DNA of 64,000 nucleotides from NCBI GenBank assembly GCA_014799485.1, contig JAAVHY010000036.1, forward strand, positions 1-64,000, written 5' to 3'. Position numbers and translations under genes: made by a program. Positions 16,871-26,611 of the stretch are shown piece after piece. The notes beneath the pieces are model-generated. The model was given only the letters and a program-made list of their open reading frames with translations. It did no database searches and was not told the DNA's origin. This DNA comes from Clostridiales bacterium (lineage in GTDB: Bacteria; Bacillota_A; Clostridia; Oscillospirales; Oscillospiraceae). Position 1 is the first letter of the stretch. Every line of letters begins with the position of its first letter.

Positions 16871-17578
16871 TTACAGGCTATAGATCTGCCGGCTGCCGCT
16901 GATGGCCTGCTCCAGATACTCGTCGATCCACCGGGAGGCGCCCCGCGCGTCCCTGGCGCGCAGGAATGAATAAAGCGTCTGGGTGCTGCTCACCAGGGCG
17001 GAAACGCCGTACAAATTGCAAAACCGCACCCATAGGGCGATGACCGCGGGCTTGAAGGAATAGTAGACCAGCGGCACGATGCTGTTGCCGCTCACCAGGG
17101 CCAGCTCATGCTGGAAGGCGAAGGCCGCCTCCGCCGCCTGCGGGGCGCTGTCCACGCCGGCGAGCCGGACCAGATGCTCCCCCAACCGCTCCAGCGCCTC
17201 ATCGGAGGCGTACAGGATGGCCCGCTCCGCCGCCAGGTGCTCCAGCGCCCGGCGCACCTCCAGGATAGAGCGGATCTCTTCATGCCCCAGCACGCCCCCC
17301 TTATACTGCATGATGGCGATGAGCGTGCTCAGGTTCCCCCGGCGGCGGTAGTCTGCCACACAGGTGCCCTGGCGGGGACGCACCTCCAAAAAGCCCTGCT
17401 GGCACAGCTCGGCCAAGCCGCTGTTTACCACCGTGCGGCTCACCTGCATCTGCTCGGCCAGGGTGCGCTCCGGCGGGAGCTGGGCCCCCACGGGCAGTTC
17501 CCCGGACAAAATCATCCCCTGGAGCTGCTGGACAAACAGGTCCTTCAGGCTGGGGGAGGAGAGCTTCGCGAATTCCAT
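16871..17578 (-). CDS. GntR-family regulator, FadR/FCD subgroup
   Basis: Transcription factor of 235 aa. The winged HTH occupies residues 8-75 (LQGMILSGELPVGAQLPPER, then TLAEQMQVSRTVVNSGLAEL and QQGFLEVRPRQGTCVAD). The rest is an all-helical FCD effector domain with RSILEVRRALEHLAAERA and a candidate metal/ligand site at FQHELAL. It is divergent from hypB. Two palindromes of the type TGGTNNNACCA, the known recognition pattern of FadR-group regulators such as PdhR and LldR, lie just downstream of its own -10 and just downstream of the hypB -10. It is therefore probably an autoregulated repressor of the hyp operon. Such FCD domains usually bind small organic acids. Confidence 0.92.
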   Translation of the reverse strand: MEFAKLSSPSLKDLFVQQLQGMILSGELPVGAQLPPERTLAEQMQVSRTVVNSGLAELCQQGFLEVRPRQGTCVADYRRRGNLSTLIAIMQYKGGVLGHEEIRSILEVRRALEHLAAERAILYASDEALERLGEHLVRLAGVDSAPQAAEAAFAFQHELALVSGNSIVPLVYYSFKPAVIALWVRFCNLYGVSALVSSTQTLYSFLRARDARGASRWIDEYLEQAISGSRQIYSL

Positions 17579-17599
17579 ACCGTCACCCCTCTCTGGTTC

Positions 17600-17653
17600 T
17601 GGTCATACCACAATCACAGGAACCAGTTTATCATATAATTCTTACAAAATCAA
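17600..17653 (-). promoter_or_regulatory. Promoter and operator of the GntR gene
   Basis: Minus-strand TTGATT (17648-17653), 17-base spacer, TAAACT (17625-17630). The palindrome TGGTCATACCA (17600-17610) sits 14 bases past the -10, within the early transcribed region, consistent with autorepression. Confidence 0.75.
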
Positions 17654-17703
17654 CCGGGCAAAACTGTGAATATAGCAGAAAATTCGGAAAGATATCCGGG
17701 TAG

Positions 17704-17757
17704 TTGACAGGAAAACAAAGAAAATGCTAAAATTATCACGATATCTGGTTCGACCAG
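17704..17757 (+). promoter_or_regulatory. Promoter and operator of the hypB operon
   Basis: TTGACA (17704-17709), 18-base spacer, TAAAAT (17728-17733). The palindrome CTGGTTCGACCAG (17745-17757) lies 11 bases after the -10 and ends about 20 bases before ATG. It shares the TGGTNNNACCA core with the site in front of the GntR gene. Confidence 0.85.
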
Positions 17758-17776
17758 AGAGAGGAGAGGATACGCG

Positions 17777-18445
17777 ATGGATCAGGTCCGGATCATTGAG
17801 GTGAAGCAGAGCGTCTTTGCCGACAATGACAGGCGGGCGGCGGAGCTTCGGGGCGAGCTGAAGGAGCGGGGCATCTTCCTGCTCAACCTCATGAGCGCCC
17901 CCGGCTCGGGCAAGACCACCACCCTGACGCGCACGGTGGAACTTTTAAAAGATGAGATGAAGATCGGCGTGATGGAGGCGGACATCGACTCCGACGTGGA
18001 CGCCCGCGCCATGGCGGCGGCAGGGGTGAAATCCATCCAGCTGCACACCGGCGGGATGTGCCACCTGGACGCCGACATGACCCGCCAGGGGCTGGACGAG
18101 CTCATCGACGGCGACGTGGAGCTGGCCATTTTGGAGAACGTGGGCAACCTGGTGTGCCCCGCCGAGTTCGACACGGGGGCGGTGAAAAACGCCGCCATCC
18201 TGTCGGTGCCCGAGGGGGACGACAAGCCGCTGAAATACCCCCTGATGTTCCAGGTCTGCGACGTGGTGCTCATCAATAAAATAGATGTGGCCCCCTATTT
18301 CGATTTCGACCTGGAGCGGTGCGCGGAATACATTCGGATGCGCAACCCCGACGCCAAGGTCATCCCCATCTGCGCCAAGACCGGCGAGGGCGTGGAGGAA
18401 TGGGCGGACTGGCTGCGGGAGCAGGTCGCTGCGTGGCAAAGCTGA
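17777..18445 (+). CDS. hypB: Nickel-incorporation GTPase HypB
   Basis: GTPase that drives nickel delivery to NiFe enzymes together with HypA. The 222 aa contain the P-loop LMSAPGSGKTT, the switch region MEADIDSDVDARAM, metal-site residues in TGGMCHLDADM (Cys and His), NLVCPAEFDTG, and the guanine-specificity motif INKIDVAP. It lacks the His-rich N-terminal nickel-storage stretch found in some HypB proteins. First gene of an operon whose next member is a large flavoprotein, not a hydrogenase. HypA lies two genes on. HypC, D, E and F are absent from the window. Confidence 0.95.
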   Translation: MDQVRIIEVKQSVFADNDRRAAELRGELKERGIFLLNLMSAPGSGKTTTLTRTVELLKDEMKIGVMEADIDSDVDARAMAAAGVKSIQLHTGGMCHLDADMTRQGLDELIDGDVELAILENVGNLVCPAEFDTGAVKNAAILSVPEGDDKPLKYPLMFQVCDVVLINKIDVAPYFDFDLERCAEYIRMRNPDAKVIPICAKTGEGVEEWADWLREQVAAWQS

Positions 18446-18462
18446 AAGAGAGGAGAAAGAGC

Positions 18463-21252
18463 ATGAGCGAGACAAAATTCCCCCTGGACGAGAGCAAGCT
18501 GCCCTTTGAGATCCCCAAGACCGACCACCCCCGGGAGAAGATCGTCAAGCTGGGCAGGATGATCACCGACCGGGTGCCCGCCAAGCTGAAGGGCGTCACC
18601 GGGGAGGACCCGGAGTACTGGGGCCTGGCCGGGATGGTCACCGACGAGATGGCCGACGTGGCCATGAAGATGAAGGTGCGCAAGCCCAAGACCTTCGCGC
18701 AGATCCAGAAGCTCACCGGCATGGAGCGGTTAAAGCTCCAGAAGCTGCTGGACGAGATGAGCCGCATCGGCCTCATCGAGTACCACTGGGAGAACCTGGA
18801 CGGCAAGAACCCCAACCACGAGAAGCGGTACGTCCTGCCCATGTTCGTGCCGGGCAGCGCGGAGTTCTTCAATATGAACCACACTGTGATCGAGGAGCAC
18901 CCGGAGGTCACCGCCTTCTTCGAGCGCATGACCTTCCTGCCCCTGGAGAAGATTACCCCCATGGTCCCCCCCGGAGGGGCGGGCATCGGCATGCACGTCA
19001 TCCCCGTGGAGAAGGCCATCGAGATGGAAAACCAGTCCATCTCCATCGAGCACATCTCCCACTGGCTGAAAAAGTACGGCAAGTTCGCCGCCTCCCCCTG
19101 CTCCTGCCGGATGAGCCGCGCCAAGATGGGCGAGGGCTGCGGCGACGACCCCGAGGGCTGGTGCGTGGCCGTGGGCGACATGGCCGACTACGTGGTGGAG
19201 ACCGACAAGGGCGGGCGCTACATCACCTATGAGGAGGCCCTGGACATCTTCAAGACGGCGGAGGCCAACGGCTTCGTCCACCAGATCACCAACATCGACG
19301 GCGAGGAGAAGATCTTCGCCATCTGCAACTGCAACGTGAACATCTGCAACGCCCTGCGCACCTCCCAGCTGTTCAACACCCCCAACATGAGCCGCTCGGC
19401 CTATGTGGCCAAGGTGGAGGAGGACAAGTGCGTGGCCTGCGGCGGCTGCGTGGAGGTCTGCCCCGCCGGCGCGGCCAAGCTGGGCCAGAAGCTGTGTACC
19501 AAGAACGGCCCGGTGGCCTACCCCCGCCAGGAGCTGCCCGACGAGGTGAAGTGGGGCCCGGAGAAGTGGTCCGTCGACTACCGGGACAAGAACCGCATCA
19601 ATACCCACGAGACGGGCACCGCCCCCTGCAAGACCGCCTGCCCCGCCCACATCGCCGTCCAGGGCTATCTCAAGCTGGCGGCCCAGGGCAAGTACACCGA
19701 GGCGCTGGAGCTCATCAAAAAGGAGAACCCCTTCCCCGCCGTGTGCGGCCGCGTCTGCAACCGCCGATGCGAGGACGCCTGCACCCGCGGCACCATCGAC
19801 CAGGCCGTGGCCATCGACGAGGTGAAGAAGTTCATCGCCCAGCAGGACCTGAACGCCGAGCACCGCTTCGTGCCCAAGAAGGTCATCCCCAAGCTGCTGG
19901 GCACGTTCAGCCAGAAGATCGCCATCATCGGCGGCGGCCCCGCCGGCCTGTCCTGCGCGTACTACCTGGCCCTCAAGGGCTACGAGCCCACCGTGTTTGA
20001 GAAGAACCCGGAGCTGGGCGGTATGCTCCGCTACGGCATCCCCTCCTTCAAGCTGGAGAAGGACGTCATCGACGCTGAGATCGACGTCATCCGCGCCCTG
20101 GGCGTGGACTTCCGCTGCGGCGTTGAGGTGGGCAAGGATCTGACCCTGGACGACCTGCGGGCCCAGGGGTACGAGGCGTTCTACATCGCCATCGGCTGCC
20201 AGCGTGGCCGTCTGCCCGGCATCCCCGGCGAGACCGCCCAGGGCGTATACTCCGCCGTGGAGTTCCTGCGCACGGCGGCGGAGGGCAAGGGCCTCCAGGT
20301 CCCCGGCAAAACCGTGGTGGTCGGCGGCGGCAACGTGGCCATCGACGCCGCCCGCACCGCCCACCGCAGCGGGGCGGAATCCGTCCAGATGTTCTGCCTG
20401 GAGCCCCGTGACAGGATGCCCGCCTCCCTGGAGGAGATCGCCGAGGCGGAGGACGAGGACGTCACCATCCAGTGCGGCTGGGGCCCCAAGGAGATACTTA
20501 CCGAGGGCGGCAAGGTGTCCGGCATCGTGTTCATGCGCTGCACCAGCGTGTGGGACGACCAGGGCCGCTTCGCCCCCCAATACGACGAGCAGGACACCAT
20601 CACCGTCCCCTGCGACCACGTTGTCCTGTCCATCGGCCAGAGCGTGGAGTGGGGCGAGCTGCTGGAGGGCACCAAGGTGGAGCTGGCCCGGGGCGGCTGG
20701 GCCAAGGCGGACGCCAAGACCTACCAAACCGCCCAGCCCGACGTGTTCGTGGGCGGCGACGTGTACACCGGCCCCAAGTTCGCCATCGACGCCATCGCGG
20801 CGGGCAAGGAGGCGGCTGTCTCCCTCCACCGCTTCGTCCAGCCCAACACCAGCATGACCATCGGCCGGGATCCCCGGTACTATGTGGAGCTGGATAAGAA
20901 CAACATCAAGGTGGAGCAGTATGACAACGCCCAGCGCCAGATCCCCGGCATGGACGACTCCATCGACTGGAAAAAGTCCTTCCGGGACGCCAAGCGCACC
21001 TTCACCGAGGAGCAGGTCAAGGCGGAGACCGCCCGCTGCCTGGGCTGCGGCGCGTCCATCGTGGACCCCAACAAGTGCATCGGCTGCGGCCTGTGTACCA
21101 CCCGCTGCGAGTTCGACGCCATCCACCTCCACCGGGACCGCCCGGAGTGCTCCACCATGATGAAGTCTGAGGACAAGATGAAGGCCATCCTGCCCAACAT
21201 GGTGAAGCGGGAGATCAAGATCAAAAAGGCCGCCCGCAAGGCCAAAAAGTAA
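18463..21252 (+). CDS. Large iron-sulfur FAD-dependent oxidoreductase (GltD/NfnB-like) with novel N-terminal domain
   Basis: Predicted cytoplasmic redox enzyme, 929 aa. Residues 1-310: a winged-helix-like segment (FAQIQKLTGMERLKLQKLLDEM), then a cysteine-rich part with SPCSCRMS (C213, C215), C226, C234 and CNCNVNIC (C288, C290, C295), possibly a cluster site. A 4Fe-4S ferredoxin motif is at C323/C326/C329/C333. Residues 385-480 resemble the GltD N-terminal double-cluster region (CKTACPAHIAVQGYL, CGRVCNRRCEDAC). FAD-binding IIGGGPAGLSCAYY is near 487, NAD(P)-binding VVVGGGNVAIDAARTA near 620, and GGDVYTGP closes the flavin site. C-terminal CLGCG and CIGCGLCTTRC form one more cluster. GltD/NfnB proteins pass electrons between NAD(P)H and ferredoxin or another partner. 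The partner is not encoded nearby. It sits between hypB and hypA. Confidence 0.9.
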   Translation: MSETKFPLDESKLPFEIPKTDHPREKIVKLGRMITDRVPAKLKGVTGEDPEYWGLAGMVTDEMADVAMKMKVRKPKTFAQIQKLTGMERLKLQKLLDEMSRIGLIEYHWENLDGKNPNHEKRYVLPMFVPGSAEFFNMNHTVIEEHPEVTAFFERMTFLPLEKITPMVPPGGAGIGMHVIPVEKAIEMENQSISIEHISHWLKKYGKFAASPCSCRMSRAKMGEGCGDDPEGWCVAVGDMADYVVETDKGGRYITYEEALDIFKTAEANGFVHQITNIDGEEKIFAICNCNVNICNALRTSQLFNTPNMSRSAYVAKVEEDKCVACGGCVEVCPAGAAKLGQKLCTKNGPVAYPRQELPDEVKWGPEKWSVDYRDKNRINTHETGTAPCKTACPAHIAVQGYLKLAAQGKYTEALELIKKENPFPAVCGRVCNRRCEDACTRGTIDQAVAIDEVKKFIAQQDLNAEHRFVPKKVIPKLLGTFSQKIAIIGGGPAGLSCAYYLALKGYEPTVFEKNPELGGMLRYGIPSFKLEKDVIDAEIDVIRALGVDFRCGVEVGKDLTLDDLRAQGYEAFYIAIGCQRGRLPGIPGETAQGVYSAVEFLRTAAEGKGLQVPGKTVVVGGGNVAIDAARTAHRSGAESVQMFCLEPRDRMPASLEEIAEAEDEDVTIQCGWGPKEILTEGGKVSGIVFMRCTSVWDDQGRFAPQYDEQDTITVPCDHVVLSIGQSVEWGELLEGTKVELARGGWAKADAKTYQTAQPDVFVGGDVYTGPKFAIDAIAAGKEAAVSLHRFVQPNTSMTIGRDPRYYVELDKNNIKVEQYDNAQRQIPGMDDSIDWKKSFRDAKRTFTEEQVKAETARCLGCGASIVDPNKCIGCGLCTTRCEFDAIHLHRDRPECSTMMKSEDKMKAILPNMVKREIKIKKAARKAKK

Positions 21253-21255
21253 GCC

Positions 21256-21600
21256 ATGCACGAACTGGGCATCGTGTTCCACATCATCAAGAGCGTGGAA
21301 CAAGTGGCGGCGGACAACGAGCTGGAAAAGGTAAACGCCGTGGTGCTGGAACTGGGGGAGGTGTCCGGGGTCATCCCGGACTACCTCACCGACTGCTGGA
21401 AGTGGGCGGCGGCGAAATCGGAACTGATGAGCGGCTCGGAGCTGAAGATCGAGACGCTGCCCGCCGTCACCCACTGCGACGGCTGCGGACGGGACTACCC
21501 CACCGTGGCTCACGGCAAGACCTGCCCCCACTGCCAGAGCGGGAACACCTGGCTTTTGACCGGCAATGAGGTCAATATCAAGGAGATCGAGGCGTACTGA
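21256..21600 (+). CDS. hypA: Nickel metallochaperone HypA/HybF
   Basis: Delivers Ni2+ with HypB during NiFe-site maturation. The 114-aa protein keeps the N-terminal nickel ligand His2 (MHELGIVFHII), and the zinc site as two CxxC pairs, CDGC and CPHC. The gene starts 3 bases after the flavoprotein stop, with the RBS inside that gene, so the two are translated together. It has the usual length for HypA. Confidence 0.95.
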   Translation: MHELGIVFHIIKSVEQVAADNELEKVNAVVLELGEVSGVIPDYLTDCWKWAAAKSELMSGSELKIETLPAVTHCDGCGRDYPTVAHGKTCPHCQSGNTWLLTGNEVNIKEIEAY

Positions 21601-21652
21601 CCAACCAACCTGTTTCCCCGGGTCCGGGGGACCCATCATATAGAGAGAAAAC

Positions 21653-21670
21653 GCGGGGCTGAGACCCCGC
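21653..21670 (+). other. Stem-loop abutting the RBS of the DUF5692 gene
   Basis: GCGGGG-ctgaga-CCCCGC, ending directly before AAAGGAGG. There is no T-run, so it is not a terminator. It may set translation efficiency or protect a processed transcript within the hyp operon. Confidence 0.5.
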
Positions 21671-21686
21671 AAAGGAGGACAAAACA

Positions 21687-22730
21687 ATGTTATTTCAAGT
21701 TTATGGCGACGGCGCCGGCTGGCAATTGCTGGGCTGGCTGCTGGTGTTCACGGGGCTGATCCTGGCCAACGAGTTTTCCCGCCGCAGCAAGCTGGGCGGC
21801 ATCATCTGCTTCCTGGCCATCCCCGCCGCGCTCACGGTGTACTTCATCGCCATCTACGTCTGTGCCGCCATGGGTATGGACTGGGCGCTGAACAACCAGA
21901 CCTATACCAACATGAACAGCTGGTTCCACTACGCCAAGCTGTACGCCGCCACGGCGGGCTGTATCGGCTTCATGATGATCAAATACAAGTGGAGCATCGG
22001 CAAGACCGAGTGGTTCAAGGTGTTCCCCTTCGTCATCGTGGCCATCAACATCCTCATCGCCGTGGGCAGCGACTTCGAGTCCGGCATCAGGGGCCTGATC
22101 TCCCTGTCCCAGAACGGCGACCGCTGGTGGCTGTCCAGCGAGAACGTGTGGCTGTACGGCGGCTGGTGGAACTGGGTCAACGGCATCGCCGGCATCCTCA
22201 ACATCTTCTGCATGACCGGCTGGTGGGGCATCTACAGATCCAAGAAGCACGACGACATGCTCTGGCCGGATATGACCATCCTGTTCATCGTGGCCTACGA
22301 CCTGTGGAACTTCGAGTACACCTACAACAACCTGCCCACCCACGCCTGGTACTGCGGCCTGGCCCTGCTGCTGGCCCCCACCTTCGCCAACGCCCTGTGG
22401 AACAAGGGCGGCTGGATCCAGAACCGCGCCCACACCCTGGCCATGTGGTGTATGTTCGCCCAGGTGTTCCCCCTGTTCCTGGACAACAGCCGGTTCTCCG
22501 TCATCCCCGTGCTGTACACTGACGGCGTGATGAACGCCGCCGTCCGTCCCACCGGCGCCGATCCCACCATGCAGGGCGTGGTGGCTGTGCTGGCCCTGGC
22601 GGCCAACGTGGTGGTGCTGGCCATCATCATCAAGCGCTCCATCGAGCAGAAGAAGAACCCGTACAAGAACGAGATCTTCACCGATCAGAAGGACTTCCAG
22701 CTTGCCATGGCGCGAGCCGAGGGCAAGTGA
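21687..22730 (+). CDS. DUF5692-family polytopic membrane protein
   Basis: Integral membrane protein of 347 aa, function unknown. About eight to nine hydrophobic segments are seen (GWQLLGWLLVFTGLILANEF, GIICFLAIPAALTVYFIAIY, WFKVFPFVIVAINILIAVG, and a last one VVAVLALAANVVVLAIIIK). Loops are very rich in Trp, Tyr and Asn (WWLSSENVWLYGGWWNWVNG, WNFEYTYNNLPTHAWY). I recognise it as similar to the DUF5692 family, without being able to confirm. AAAGGAGG precedes the ATG. Last gene of the hyp operon, so it may be the membrane component of the same redox process, for example a transporter for its substrate. Confidence 0.7.
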   Translation: MLFQVYGDGAGWQLLGWLLVFTGLILANEFSRRSKLGGIICFLAIPAALTVYFIAIYVCAAMGMDWALNNQTYTNMNSWFHYAKLYAATAGCIGFMMIKYKWSIGKTEWFKVFPFVIVAINILIAVGSDFESGIRGLISLSQNGDRWWLSSENVWLYGGWWNWVNGIAGILNIFCMTGWWGIYRSKKHDDMLWPDMTILFIVAYDLWNFEYTYNNLPTHAWYCGLALLLAPTFANALWNKGGWIQNRAHTLAMWCMFAQVFPLFLDNSRFSVIPVLYTDGVMNAAVRPTGADPTMQGVVAVLALAANVVVLAIIIKRSIEQKKNPYKNEIFTDQKDFQLAMARAEGK

Positions 22731-22770: not shown

Positions 22771-22806
22771 GGCCGCCCGCGGAAGCTTCCGCGGGCGGCC
22801 TGTTAT
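22771..22806. terminator. Bidirectional terminator between hyp operon and GH13 gene
   Basis: A perfect 15-bp palindrome, GGCCGCCCGCGGAAG and its complement (22771-22800), followed by TGTTATT on plus. The minus side is followed by GTTTTCTGACC. It separates convergent genes. Confidence 0.85.
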
Positions 22807-22849: not shown

Positions 22850-24724
22850 TCAATCAGCGGCGGCGTCAGGCCGGTCCGGCCCGGTCTCCTGCCCCATATA
22901 GCAGAAGCCATAGGCCGGCAGGACAAGCTCTTGCAGCGTCTGTGTCCCGCCCGTGAGCAGATCGGTAAATTCCCCGCCGTCATAGGGGAAGTCCACCGTT
23001 TTCTCCTCCCCGGTGAAGTTGAACGCACCGATGATCTTTTGGCCGCCGAAGTACCGTCCAATGGCCAGCACGCCATCGTCCCCGGTGTCCAGCGTCCACA
23101 CGTCCGCCGCCGCCGAGAAAGCGGGGTTGTCCTTGCGGAGCTTCCCCAGGGCGTTCAGCCCCTGGAACACCCGGCCCTCTGGGGTGGACTGGTCGTCCGC
23201 GTGCCCCGCCAGCTCCCAGCGCATTTTCCCCCGGTGGAGGTAACGGCTGTCCTCGGCCTTGTTGGGGTCGTCTTTGTAGCTGTAGTCGTTCACCTGGGCG
23301 ATCTCGTCCCCGCTGTACAGCAGGGGGATACCGGTCTGCATGAACATCATGGCGTGGAGGGTCAGGTCGAACCGCACCGCCCGCTCCATGGCCCCGGCGT
23401 CCTGCTCAAACCCCGCCTTCTCGATGCCGCACAGGCTGGCGGTGGTGCCGCATTGGCGGGCATCGCCGCTGGCGGGGTCGTCGTTGTACAGCTCCCCCCG
23501 GCTGACGCTGCCCTCCACATGGCCCTGGAACCAGTCGCTGAGGAACTTTTTATGGGGCACCTCAGAAATCCCCCATTGCTTCAGCGTGTCGTAGTCCAGT
23601 CCCCAGCCGATGTCGTCGTGGCAGCGCAGGTAGTTGAGGAACACGTACTGCTTGGGCAGGGCGTTGACGATATCCAGCTGCCTGCGCAGCAGCCGGGTGT
23701 CCCGGGTGGCCACGGTGTGCCAGGTGGTGCACATGGTGGTGACGTTGTAGAGCAAGTGGCACTCCGGCTTTTCCACCGTGCCGAAATAGGGCACCACCTT
23801 GACGGGCTCCATCACCACCTCGCCCAGCAGGATGACGCTGGGGCAGACGATCTCGCCGATTATGCGCATCATCCGCACGATGGTGTGGACCTGGGGCAGA
23901 TTGCGGCAGTCGGTGCCCAGCTCCTTCCAGATGTAGGGCACCGCGTCGATGCGGATCATGTCCATGCCCTTGTTGGCCAGGAACAGGAAATTGTACATCA
24001 TCTCGTTGAACACCCGGGGGTTGCGGTAGTTCAGATCCCACTGGTAGGGGTAGAAGGAGGTCATGACGTAGTGGCCGCAGTCGTCAAGCCAGGTGAAGTT
24101 CCCCGGCGCGGTGGTGGGGAACACCTGGGGCACGGTCTTTTCGTACTCCTGGGGAATGGCCGGGTCGGCAAAAAAGAAGTAGCGGCTCATATACTCCCCG
24201 TCCCCGGCACGGGCCTTTTTCGCCCACTCGTGGTCCTGGCTGGTGTGGTTCATCACGAAGTCCATGCACACGTTGACGCCCTTCTTGTGGCAGGCGGCGG
24301 TGAGCTTTTCCAAATCGTCCATGGTGCCCAGATCGGGCCGCACCGCCCGGAAATCCGCCACGGCGTAGCCGCCGTCGCTCCGGTCGGGGACGGTGTCCAG
24401 GAAGGGCATGAGGTGGATGAGGTTCACGCCGGTCTTCTCAATATACGACAGCTTTTTGCGCACGCCGTCCAAGTTCCCGGCAAAGTTGTCGATGTACAGC
24501 ATCATGCCCGTCAGGCCGCTGGACTTGTACCACTCAGGATCGGCTTCCCGCTGGATGTCCCGCTTTTTCAGCGGGTTGGGGCGCTCGTCCGCGAAGCGGC
24601 GCAGTTGGTTGCACAGCTCTGCGAACATGGCGTCGCTGCCATACAGCTCCATATACAGCCAGCGCAGCTCGTCCAGATGCCGGGCCAGACGGTTCTGGAA
24701 CAGGGCCTCTTCCTTTTTTGTCAT
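22850..24724 (-). CDS. GH13 amylosucrase-like alpha-glucosyltransferase
   Basis: Alpha-amylase-superfamily enzyme, 624 aa, closest in motif pattern to amylosucrase, which uses sucrose to build alpha-glucan or glucose transfer products. The conserved regions are intact: DFVMNHTS (Asp155, His160), MDMIRIDAVPYIWK with nucleophile Asp260, LLGEVVM with acid/base Glu302, and NYLRCHDDIGW (His369, Asp370). RxHDDIGW is characteristic of amylosucrases and related sucrose hydrolases. The helical N-terminal domain (residues 1-80) is also typical. No signal peptide is present, so it is cytoplasmic. It stands alone, without sugar transporter or phosphorylase. Sucrose hydrolase is the main alternative. Confidence 0.88.
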   Translation of the reverse strand: MTKKEEALFQNRLARHLDELRWLYMELYGSDAMFAELCNQLRRFADERPNPLKKRDIQREADPEWYKSSGLTGMMLYIDNFAGNLDGVRKKLSYIEKTGVNLIHLMPFLDTVPDRSDGGYAVADFRAVRPDLGTMDDLEKLTAACHKKGVNVCMDFVMNHTSQDHEWAKKARAGDGEYMSRYFFFADPAIPQEYEKTVPQVFPTTAPGNFTWLDDCGHYVMTSFYPYQWDLNYRNPRVFNEMMYNFLFLANKGMDMIRIDAVPYIWKELGTDCRNLPQVHTIVRMMRIIGEIVCPSVILLGEVVMEPVKVVPYFGTVEKPECHLLYNVTTMCTTWHTVATRDTRLLRRQLDIVNALPKQYVFLNYLRCHDDIGWGLDYDTLKQWGISEVPHKKFLSDWFQGHVEGSVSRGELYNDDPASGDARQCGTTASLCGIEKAGFEQDAGAMERAVRFDLTLHAMMFMQTGIPLLYSGDEIAQVNDYSYKDDPNKAEDSRYLHRGKMRWELAGHADDQSTPEGRVFQGLNALGKLRKDNPAFSAAADVWTLDTGDDGVLAIGRYFGGQKIIGAFNFTGEEKTVDFPYDGGEFTDLLTGGTQTLQELVLPAYGFCYMGQETGPDRPDAAAD

Positions 24725-24820: not shown

Positions 24821-26611
24821 TCACCCGAACTGGCTGGCATACAGCTTATAATAGAACCCCTTGCGCGCCATAAGCTCCTCGTGGGCGCCCTGCTCCACCA
24901 CGTCGCCGTGGTCCACCACCAGGATGTGGTCGGCGTTCTGGATGGTGGACAGCCGGTGGGCGATGACGAAGCAGGTCTTGCCCGCCATGAGGGAGCGGAT
25001 GGCCTTCTGCACCTGCCGCTCGGTGTTGGTGTCCACGTTGGAGGTGGCTTCGTCCAGGATGAGCATATGGGTGTCGTACAGCATGGCCCGGGCGATGGTG
25101 AGCAGCTGCTTCTGCCCTTTGGAGATGTTGCCGCCGTCCTCGCTGATGACGGTGTGGTAGCCCTGGGGCAGCCGCATGATGTAGCTGTGGATGCGGGCGG
25201 CCTTGGCGGCGGCCACCACCTCTTCCATGGTGGCGTCCTCTTTGCCGTAGGCGATGTTGTCGAAAATGGTCCCACGGAACACCCAGGTGTCCTGGAGCAC
25301 CATGGCGTAGCTCCGGCGCAGGGAGTCCATGGTGTAGGCCCGGTTTTCCGCCCCGTCCACGTAGATGCAGCCCTCATCCGGGTCGTAGAACCGCATGAGC
25401 AGGTTGATGATGGTGGTCTTGCCCGCCCCGGTGGGGCCTACGATGGCCACCGTCTGGCCGGGCTTCGCCTCGAAGTCCAGGTGGTGGAGGATCGTGCGGC
25501 CCGGGTCGTAGCCGAAGCTCACATCTTCCCCCCGGACATGGCCCCGGCAGCTTTCCAGCTCCGCCGCGCCGTAGATGTCCTTGACCTCCTCCGGCTCGTC
25601 CAGCAGGCGGAACACCCGCTCGGAGGCGGCCAGGGCGGAAAATATCTCGTTGACAATGTTGGAGATCTCGTTGATGGGGCCGGAGAACTTCCGGGAATAG
25701 AGCACAAAGGAGGAGATCTGCTCCAGCCCCACCACCCCCAGCATATAGAGGATGGCGCCGCCGGTGCCGATGGCGGCCAGGCCGAAGTTGGAGATCATGC
25801 CCACGGTGGGGCCCATGGCCATGCCCATGCCGTCCGCGTTCCGATACGCCTCGGCGGCGTTTCGGTTGATCTTGCTGAAATCCTCGCACACCCGGTCCTC
25901 CTGGGCGTAGGCCAGGATGGTGCGCTGGCCGGTGAACATCTCCTCGGCGAAGCCGTTCATCTCGCCGTAGGCCGCGCTGCGCTTTGCGTAAAGCGGCCTT
26001 GTCTTTTTGCTCATGAACCGGGTGAACAGGATGGAGGCGGGGATGGTGGCCGCCATGCACAGCACCAGGGGCGGCGAGATGACGCACATCATGGCGAAGC
26101 TGCCCGCCACCGTCACAGTGCTGGTGAGGATCTGGATCACGTCGGTGGACAGGCTGGTACACACCACGTCCACGTCATAACTCACCCGGCTGATGATGTC
26201 GCCGGCCTGGTGCCGGTCAAAGTAGCCCACCGGCAGGGTCATCAGCTTGTCGAACACGTCCCGGCGCATATTCCGGGCCACCCGGCGGCCCACCCGCATC
26301 ATGCCGATGCTCACCAGGAAGCTCATCACGCTGCCCCCCGCGTAACAGGCCAGCATGAGCAGGGCGTAATGGAGCACCGCGTCCATATCCACGTGCCCGG
26401 GGCCCAGCTGCCAGCCCTCCTCCACCACGCCGATGGCCTTCCCGGCAAACCGGGGGCCCAGCAGGTTGCCGGTGTTGCTCAGCAAGGTGCAGGCCAGGAA
26501 CAGCAGCACCCACCAGCGGTATGTCATCAAATATTGCAGGATGCGCCGCAGCGCGCCCTTTGCGTCCCGGGGTTTGGCCTTCACGCCGCCCCGGTCTCCC
26601 GGTCCGGGCAT
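24821..26611 (-). CDS. ABC exporter half-transporter (TM-NBD), catalytic-site partner
   Basis: Type I ABC exporter subunit, 596 aa: six TM helices (residues about 35-345) and an NBD. Walker A is GPTGAGKTT, the signature reads NISKGQKQL (variant of LSGGQ), Walker B LILDEATSNVD keeps the catalytic glutamate, and the H-loop is IAHRLST. It is encoded 16 bases after the paired half-transporter at 26628-28382, as in heterodimeric multidrug exporters such as BmrCD or TM287/288. Substrate unknown. Confidence 0.93.
   Translation of the reverse strand: MPGPGDRGGVKAKPRDAKGALRRILQYLMTYRWWVLLFLACTLLSNTGNLLGPRFAGKAIGVVEEGWQLGPGHVDMDAVLHYALLMLACYAGGSVMSFLVSIGMMRVGRRVARNMRRDVFDKLMTLPVGYFDRHQAGDIISRVSYDVDVVCTSLSTDVIQILTSTVTVAGSFAMMCVISPPLVLCMAATIPASILFTRFMSKKTRPLYAKRSAAYGEMNGFAEEMFTGQRTILAYAQEDRVCEDFSKINRNAAEAYRNADGMGMAMGPTVGMISNFGLAAIGTGGAILYMLGVVGLEQISSFVLYSRKFSGPINEISNIVNEIFSALAASERVFRLLDEPEEVKDIYGAAELESCRGHVRGEDVSFGYDPGRTILHHLDFEAKPGQTVAIVGPTGAGKTTIINLLMRFYDPDEGCIYVDGAENRAYTMDSLRRSYAMVLQDTWVFRGTIFDNIAYGKEDATMEEVVAAAKAARIHSYIMRLPQGYHTVISEDGGNISKGQKQLLTIARAMLYDTHMLILDEATSNVDTNTERQVQKAIRSLMAGKTCFVIAHRLSTIQNADHILVVDHGDVVEQGAHEELMARKGFYYKLYASQFG

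What the first reader, a model, noticed from the sequence alone, without database searches (positions are those of the whole stretch)
17579..22730. Hydrogenase-maturation genes wrapped around an uncharacterised Fe-S flavoprotein, with no hydrogenase
hypB, a 929-aa oxidoreductase, hypA and a DUF5692 membrane protein lie in one operon under a GntR repressor. HypA and HypB serve NiFe enzymes, but no NiFe subunit and no hypCDEF is present here. Two readings fit: nickel (or another metal) is delivered to this flavoprotein or its partner, or HypAB serves an enzyme elsewhere and the locus couples metal supply with redox. The joint operon, the tight 3-base gap before hypA and the tandem regulator make a dedicated system plausible.
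Basis: partly seen in the sequence, partly recalled or inferred. Interest (0 to 1): 0.72.

Follow-up and report, generated by a model that had tools for sequence, protein, structure and literature searches.

The report
Nickel-chaperone operon around a flavin reductase
A gut-type Clostridia operon builds a large iron-sulfur/flavin enzyme together with its own two nickel chaperones and a membrane protein, and it belongs to a family in which one relative is the proposed enzyme that hydrogenates isoprene, so it is probably a metal-dependent reductase rather than anything to do with hydrogenase.

Summary
hypB, a 929-aa Fe-S flavoprotein, hypA and a DUF5692 membrane gene form one likely transcription unit, divergent from one GntR/FCD gene. 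This locus is a new member of that kind.

What I add: (1) 60 of 70 carrier genomes lack HypD; in 58 of those 60 every clear HypA lies beside the flavoprotein. (2) The sampled flavoprotein-linked HypA/HypB branch apart from hydrogenase-linked ones. (3) In 147 genomes drawn evenly from a carrier's class, all six HypD-less genomes with HypA of 70 bits or more carry the flavoprotein. (4) Stand-alone homologues of only its N-terminal domain have their own hypA-hypB directly downstream in two further, diverged lineages, pointing to that domain as HypAB client; most stand-alone homologues (22 of 26), however, have none nearby. (5) Two FCD-type palindromes lie in the promoter region.

Nickel itself, the substrate and DUF5692's role remain unproven.

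The parts
16871..17578 (-). GntR-family regulator with FCD ligand-binding domain, divergent from the operon
   Evidence: PF00392 59 bits, PF07729 45.8 bits
17600..17610 (.). putative regulator operator 1, TGGTCATACCA, next to the gntR start
   Evidence: one of only two TGGTNNNACCA sites in 64 kb; sites enriched at the same place in relatives
17704..17733 (+). sigma-70-like promoter TTGACA-18-TAAAAT with TG before the -10
   Evidence: consensus scan, 11 of 12 matches
17746..17756 (.). putative regulator operator 2, TGGTTCGACCA, 12 bases after the -10
17777..18445 (+). hypB: GTPase of the nickel chaperone pair; G-domain site C95-H96 and C127 present
   Evidence: TIGR00073 249.5 bits; C95, H96, C127 in 65 of 65; HypB structures matched
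18463..21252 (+). 929-aa Fe-S flavoprotein, IsrA-like: N-terminal Cys-rich domain, ferredoxin site, GltD/NfnB-like FAD/NAD module, C-terminal ferredoxin site
18463..19371 (+). N-terminal domain (residues 1-303): winged-helix-like part (about 45-135) plus Cys/His site C213, C215, C226, C234, H273, C288, C290, C295; no Pfam family
   Evidence: 81 of 81 conserved; model; Pfam gives only Fer4 types, from residue 315 on
19618..20841 (+). GltD/NfnB-like module, residues about 386-793 (two 4Fe-4S, FAD and NAD(P) sites)
   Evidence: PF14691, PF07992; PDB sequence matches begin at residue 368 or later
21256..21600 (+). hypA: nickel metallochaperone-like, MHE start and two CxxC
   Evidence: PF01155 112 bits; H2 in 80 of 80
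21687..22730 (+). DUF5692 multi-pass membrane protein
   Evidence: PF18948 463 bits; helical model
22771..22800 (.). terminator-like hairpin closing the unit
   Evidence: 13 pairs, 12 GC

Best explanation
This is a ligand-controlled operon for an IsrA-type reductase with its own metal-insertion pair. Proposed course: an organic acid or similar ligand releases the GntR/FCD protein from two palindromes around the promoter (inferred). HypB and HypA are then made together with the flavoprotein and load a metal, most likely nickel, into the Cys/His site of its N-terminal domain (target domain supported, nickel inferred). The GltD-like module takes electrons from NADH through FAD and a chain of 4Fe-4S clusters and passes them to that site, where an unsaturated organic substrate is hydrogenated as an electron sink (inferred by analogy with IsrA). 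DUF5692 anchors the enzyme or moves the substrate across the membrane (weakest step).
For: Conserved module: HypA in 79, HypB in 64, DUF5692 in 61 of 80 loci. HypD in only 10 of 70 carrier genomes; of 86 HypA of 70 bits or more, 73 lie within 1.5 kb of the flavoprotein, 8 within 15 kb of HypD, 5 elsewhere. Even class sample: 10 of 11 flavoproteins have a HypA within about 160 bases, and HypA of 70 bits or more in HypD-less genomes occurs only with the flavoprotein (without the centre genome 5 of 5 against 0 of 114, Fisher 5e-9). Sampled flavoprotein-linked HypB and HypA branch apart from the hydrogenase-linked ones. Client domain: homologues of the N-terminal domain alone are followed directly by hypA-hypB in G068/G070 and in G661, G882 and G845, whose 16-kb surroundings match no other hyp or hydrogenase gene of four such loci. 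The Cys/His site is invariant in 81 of 81. Operators, promoter, terminator. E647 in 81 of 81 at the end of the NAD-site strand suggests NADH (recalled rule). Published: isoprene raises four proteins of the isr operon (LFC 6.2 to 10.7), and IsrA's modelled Cys6 site holds CxC pairs 180/182 and 254/256, matching 213/215 and 288/290 here.
Confidence: 0.6

Rival explanations
1. HypAB here matures a nickel enzyme encoded elsewhere (NiFe hydrogenase, urease, CODH), and its place beside the flavoprotein is a co-regulation accident.
For: HypA/HypB are known to serve hydrogenase and, in Helicobacter pylori, urease (text and reference list of PMC10134865); 10 of 70 carriers have HypD and 2 of 70 a strong urease match.
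Against: 60 of 70 carriers lack HypD and 68 of 70 lack a strong urease match; all 10 HypD genomes have at least one further HypA away from the flavoprotein, and the five hydrogenase-linked HypB sampled form their own branch. CODH and lactate racemase were not searched for.
Confidence: 0.1
2. HypAB delivers another metal (Zn, Co, Fe) or acts as a GTP-dependent assembly chaperone for a non-nickel Fe-S cluster at the N-terminal site.
For: The site is Cys-rich like an Fe-S site; homologues with much the same Cys pattern occur without HypAB nearby. The HypA is divergent (under the TIGR00100 cut-off).
Against: The HypB C95-H96...C127 site (65 of 65) and the HypA MHE start (all 29 flavoprotein-linked rows of the tree) are intact, corresponding to the residues that PMC10134865 names for nickel.
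Confidence: 0.2
3. The flavoprotein is an electron-bifurcating Nfn-like transhydrogenase or ferredoxin reductase with no organic substrate of its own; the N-domain docks a ferredoxin or partner.
For: The GltD/NfnB module matches NfnA, FDH-fused and GltD structures; several ferredoxin sites.
Against: No further redox subunit gene stood out among recurring neighbours, though that survey lost some true genes and its clusters were not annotated; N-domain, HypAB and an FCD regulator would be unexplained.
Confidence: 0.15

Closest known systems
IsrA, putative isoprene reductase of Acetobacterium wieringae, and its 'clade 9' homologues (PMC10134865; abstract, 12 of 34 passages, sections 8 and 9 read)
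   Same: about 900 aa, GltD-like module plus extra ferredoxin sites, N-terminal CxC/CxC site at matching spacing, HypA/HypB and DUF5692 neighbours, mostly anaerobic Firmicutes
   Different: isr operon has a second hypA and a 4Fe-4S ferredoxin and no DUF5692 among its five genes; here GntR/FCD control, DUF5692 in the unit, seven invariant Cys instead of the six described; substrate unknown; IsrA's sequence itself was not compared
NfnB / GltD / PRK12771-type FAD-NAD(P) modules
   Same: residues about 386-865
   Different: N-terminal 300 residues have no match in them; acidic E647 at the NAD site; below the cut-off of all 25 NCBIfam families shown, of 73 matched
[NiFe]-hydrogenase maturation HypA/HypB
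   Same: protein families and metal-site residues
   Different: no HypD in 60 of 70 carriers, separate branches in both trees

Membership tests
IsrA-type (clade 9) oxidoreductase | full length about 900 aa aligned end to end | tested here: met
   929 aa; the 80 relatives align over nearly the whole length; published IsrA 901 aa
IsrA-type (clade 9) oxidoreductase | FAD/NAD(P) domain PF07992, PF14691 and two further ferredoxin-type sites | tested here: met
IsrA-type (clade 9) oxidoreductase | N-terminal site with two CxC motifs about 72 residues apart | tested here: met
   C213/C215 and C288/C290, 81 of 81; published 180/182 and 254/256
IsrA-type (clade 9) oxidoreductase | HypA, HypB, DUF5692 as frequent neighbours | tested here: met
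   against published 0.73, 0.56, 0.40
IsrA-type (clade 9) oxidoreductase | falls in clade 9 of the published tree / identity to IsrA | not tested
   IsrA's sequence was not obtained
IsrA-type (clade 9) oxidoreductase | isoprene induction or C=C reduction | not testable with these tools
   needs cultures or enzyme
isr operon proper | five genes: oxidoreductase, two hypA, hypB, 4Fe-4S ferredoxin | tested here: not met
   one hypA, no separate ferredoxin gene in the unit, DUF5692 instead
[NiFe]-hydrogenase locus | hydrogenase subunits and hypCDEF with hypAB | tested here: not met
   no match in the window to such genes of four loci except hypA and hypB; in relatives' genomes HypD 10 of 70. Own genome not held
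HypB (TIGR00073) | score over curated cut-off; CH...C site | tested here: met
   249.5 against 121.2
HypA (TIGR00100 equivalog) | score over curated cut-off | tested here: not met
   69 against 88.1
HypA (PF01155 family) | score over gathering cut-off; MHE start; two CxxC | tested here: met
   112 against 28.9

The most novel reading that the evidence does not exclude
The N-terminal domain is a portable catalytic or redox module carrying a nickel (or mixed nickel/Fe-S) centre that is loaded by HypA and HypB alone, without HypCDEF. It is used both fused to a flavin electron-input module, as here, and as a stand-alone ferredoxin-type protein with its own hypAB. It would be a nickel-enzyme class outside the known ones, spread through gut Clostridia as reductases of different unsaturated compounds.
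Probability: 0.33. Interest if true: 0.87.

Novelty: new member of a known kind. Interest (0 to 1): 0.57.

Why it matters
HypAB without a hydrogenase needs an explanation wherever it is annotated. If the flavoprotein's N-terminal domain is the client, one family explains it in these gut Clostridia, and a nickel-dependent enzyme class can be tested directly: named isolates of Gemmiger, Fournierella, Mediterraneibacter and Blautia appear among the loci. It would also tie nickel supply to microbial hydrogenation of dietary or host compounds.

Full report
ANATOMY. GntR/FCD lies on the minus strand at 16871-17578. On the plus strand follow hypB (17777-18445), the flavoprotein (18463-21252), hypA (21256-21600, 3 bases later) and DUF5692 (21687-22730, 86 bases later). 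Upstream ORFs look like pyrimidine biosynthesis genes (recalled by eye, not scanned); downstream a minus-strand alpha-amylase-family gene (22850-24724) and an ABC exporter-like gene (24821-26611) follow. A promoter-like TTGACA-18-TAAAAT lies at 17704-17733 and a 13-pair hairpin at 22771-22800 (consensus matches, not proof; 2 promoter-like sites found against 1.2 expected, 9 terminator-like against 4.2).

REGULATION. TGGTNNNACCA (the FCD/FadR operator consensus TNGTNNNACNA is recalled) occurs twice in the 64-kb window, at 17600 and 17746, both in the 198-base gntR-hypB gap; 2 or more occur in 22 of 100 shuffles of the window, so the count is unremarkable but the place is not. In relatives with a GntR gene divergent and just upstream, 20 of 31 gaps (with 60-base margins) hold such a site: 29 sites in 8.9 kb, against 56 in 979 kb over all 80 loci, these 29 included. 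Eleven of 31 have none: eight are Gemmiger or Fournierella loci, and for one (L003) the gap was set wrongly by an overlong ORF. The second window site begins 12 bases after the -10 element, a place fit for repression.

THE FLAVOPROTEIN. Residues 386-464 match PF14691, 485-781 PF07992, with ferredoxin sites near 315-337 and 866-887. Solved structures match by sequence only from residue 368 on. Residues 1-310 have no Pfam family. In the window protein and 80 relatives (the best 80 of 477 found) C213, C215, C226, C234, C288, C290, C295, H178 and H273 are present in 81 of 81. A model of residues 1-345 (mean pLDDT 78.9, pTM 0.80; 1-5, 171-195 and 336-345 poor) shows a winged-helix-like part, then an alternating strand/helix part carrying the Cys site. 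The NAD-site strand ends in E647 in 81 of 81, which by a recalled rule favours NADH.

HYPAB WITHOUT HYDROGENASE. Four loci of carrier genomes that hold Ech-like hydrogenase and/or hyp genes (L116-L119) were compared with all window ORFs: apart from unrelated genes, only hypA and hypB (and an ORF antisense to hypB) match. Of the genomes of 70 of the 80 loci (10 left out), HypD is in 10. The NiFe large-subunit family matched in 3 of the 20 searched, all HypD-positive. Urease alpha matched strongly in 2 of 70; seven further genomes had weak matches (24 bits or less), three of them over the cut-off. HypA at 70 bits or more: 86 proteins, 73 within 1.5 kb of the flavoprotein, 8 within 15 kb of HypD, 5 elsewhere; 15 weaker hits (32.4 bits or less, two of them over the cut-off) were dropped. 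In 58 of 60 HypD-less genomes every such HypA is beside the flavoprotein; the two others are G068 and G070, explained below. Three of 76 flavoprotein copies lack an adjacent HypA (G023:C32, G018:C6, G059:C63). Genome completeness was not shown, so absence in one assembly is weak; the pattern over 60 is not.

SAMPLE NOT CHOSEN BY THE FLAVOPROTEIN. In 147 genomes drawn evenly from the class of G070 (which is itself included; the class is not named to me), the flavoprotein (E 1e-150 or better, six candidates scored per genome) occurs in 10 genomes, 11 copies; 10 copies have a HypA within about 160 bases, G093:C18 has none. Full HypD matches occur in 27 genomes; two fragments under 27 bits, one of them over the cut-off, were not counted. 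Four of the 10 carriers have HypD (G093, G130, G154, G206), each with a second HypA. HypD-less genomes with a HypA of 70 bits or more: six, all flavoprotein carriers (G070, G075, G106, G109, G117, G202). Without the centre genome: 5 of 5 carriers against 0 of 114 non-carriers, Fisher 5e-9. Against this, seven HypD-less non-carriers have HypA-like hits of 50-68 bits and one of 29.6; these match only from model position 4 to 8 on, so the MHE site is not covered; 30 further genomes had only hits under the cut-off. DUF5692 over 170 bits: 6 of the 10 carriers, 0 of 137 others, one 55-bit fragment in G165.

DEDICATED CHAPERONES. Trees of 29 flavoprotein-linked rows (chosen from 65 HypB and 80 HypA) with the others at hand: the 29 HypB plus the G062 one stand together against five HypD-linked and two N-domain-linked HypB (99/97 support); the 29 HypA form one side of a branch (94/83, 91% of bootstrap trees). 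Caveats from the program: H_L119 and Q_L113 HypA and F_L070 HypB are long branches, and the N-domain-linked HypA group with the flavoprotein-linked ones (86/82) while the N-domain-linked HypB group with the hydrogenase side. HypB C95, H96, C127 are in 65 of 65 and HypA H2 in 80 of 80.

WHICH DOMAIN IS THE CLIENT. The odd hypAB in G068 and G070 follows, 0-1 bases apart, a 397-aa protein that is only the N-terminal domain plus ferredoxin sites (28% identity over 177 residues, E 1e-10). A DUF5692 gene lies about 2.5 kb from it in G070, on the other strand with two genes between. A profile of such stand-alone proteins found 24 matches in 21 of 398 genomes of the phylum of G070. Four of the 24 (G070, G661, G882, G845) have hypA then hypB directly downstream. 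The last three are 46-71% identical to each other but only 20-24% to the G070 one; gaps to hypA are 54-112 bases, and their 16-kb surroundings match none of the other hyp and hydrogenase genes of L116-L119. Against: their hypA scores best with the hydrogenase-type query (73-87 bits), and their genomes could not be searched for HypD any more. HypA is present in about a quarter of class genomes (34 of 147 over cut-off), so chance adjacency should be rare (not computed). The remaining 20, and two further ones (L129, L130), have no HypAB within about 1.5 kb. PMC10134865 reported no HypA/HypB association of its ferredoxin among the homologues' neighbourhoods; these loci show one for the domain. The common partner of hypAB in the three settings is the N-terminal domain, which fits the published guess that cluster V is the nickel site. 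An exception is G062, where a FLAV-type hypB and a hypA follow NuoE/NuoF-like genes and a 2Fe-2S/GltD fusion that lacks the domain.

COMPARISON AND NOVELTY. The kind is published: IsrA, induced by isoprene, with 988 homologues whose neighbours are HypA 0.73, HypB 0.56, DUF5692 0.40 (abstract, 12 of 34 passages and sections 8 and 9 read, supplements not). The strain Y paper (PMC9765523) was seen only in a search listing. I therefore file the locus as a new member of a known kind. New here, as far as those readings and ten searches show, are the genome-wide partition of HypA, the separate branches, the stand-alone N-domain/hypAB loci and the operator pair.

WHAT IS SHOWN AND WHAT IS NOT. Shown: gene set, its conservation and exclusiveness, the Cys/His site, likely control region. 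Inferred: nickel, NADH, direction of electron flow, substrate class, the role of DUF5692.

Noticed in passing
L113:5727-11194 (G062:C17): NuoE/NuoF-like genes, a 739-aa 2Fe-2S plus GltD-like fusion and then hypB (66% identical to the window's HypB) and hypA on the same strand; the fusion has no N-domain.
   Followed up: partly
L111 and L112 (G018:C5, G059:C5): Lone hypA genes near genes that read like partition and response-regulator genes (by eye) in two HypD-positive genomes, away from both flavoprotein and HypD.
   Followed up: no
class sample, G089, G119, G143, G164, G166, G188, G207: HypA-like hits of 50-68 bits that start at model position 4 to 7, so the usual MHE metal site is not matched, in genomes without a full HypD.
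   Followed up: no
class sample, G104, G112, G120, G176, G187, G189, G208: Genomes with a full HypD match but no HypA match over cut-off.
   Followed up: no
L009 (G023:C32:51647-54418): A flavoprotein copy with GntR and DUF5692 but no hypAB in the locus; the same genome has a second copy with hypA.
   Followed up: partly
L154, L155, L156, L160, L144, L164, L129, L130: Stand-alone N-domain homologues with Q in place of the conserved H273, none beside hypAB (read by eye).
   Followed up: partly
window 21652-21671: GC-rich hairpin without a T tract on the plus strand between hypA and DUF5692, just before the DUF5692 ribosome site.
   Followed up: no
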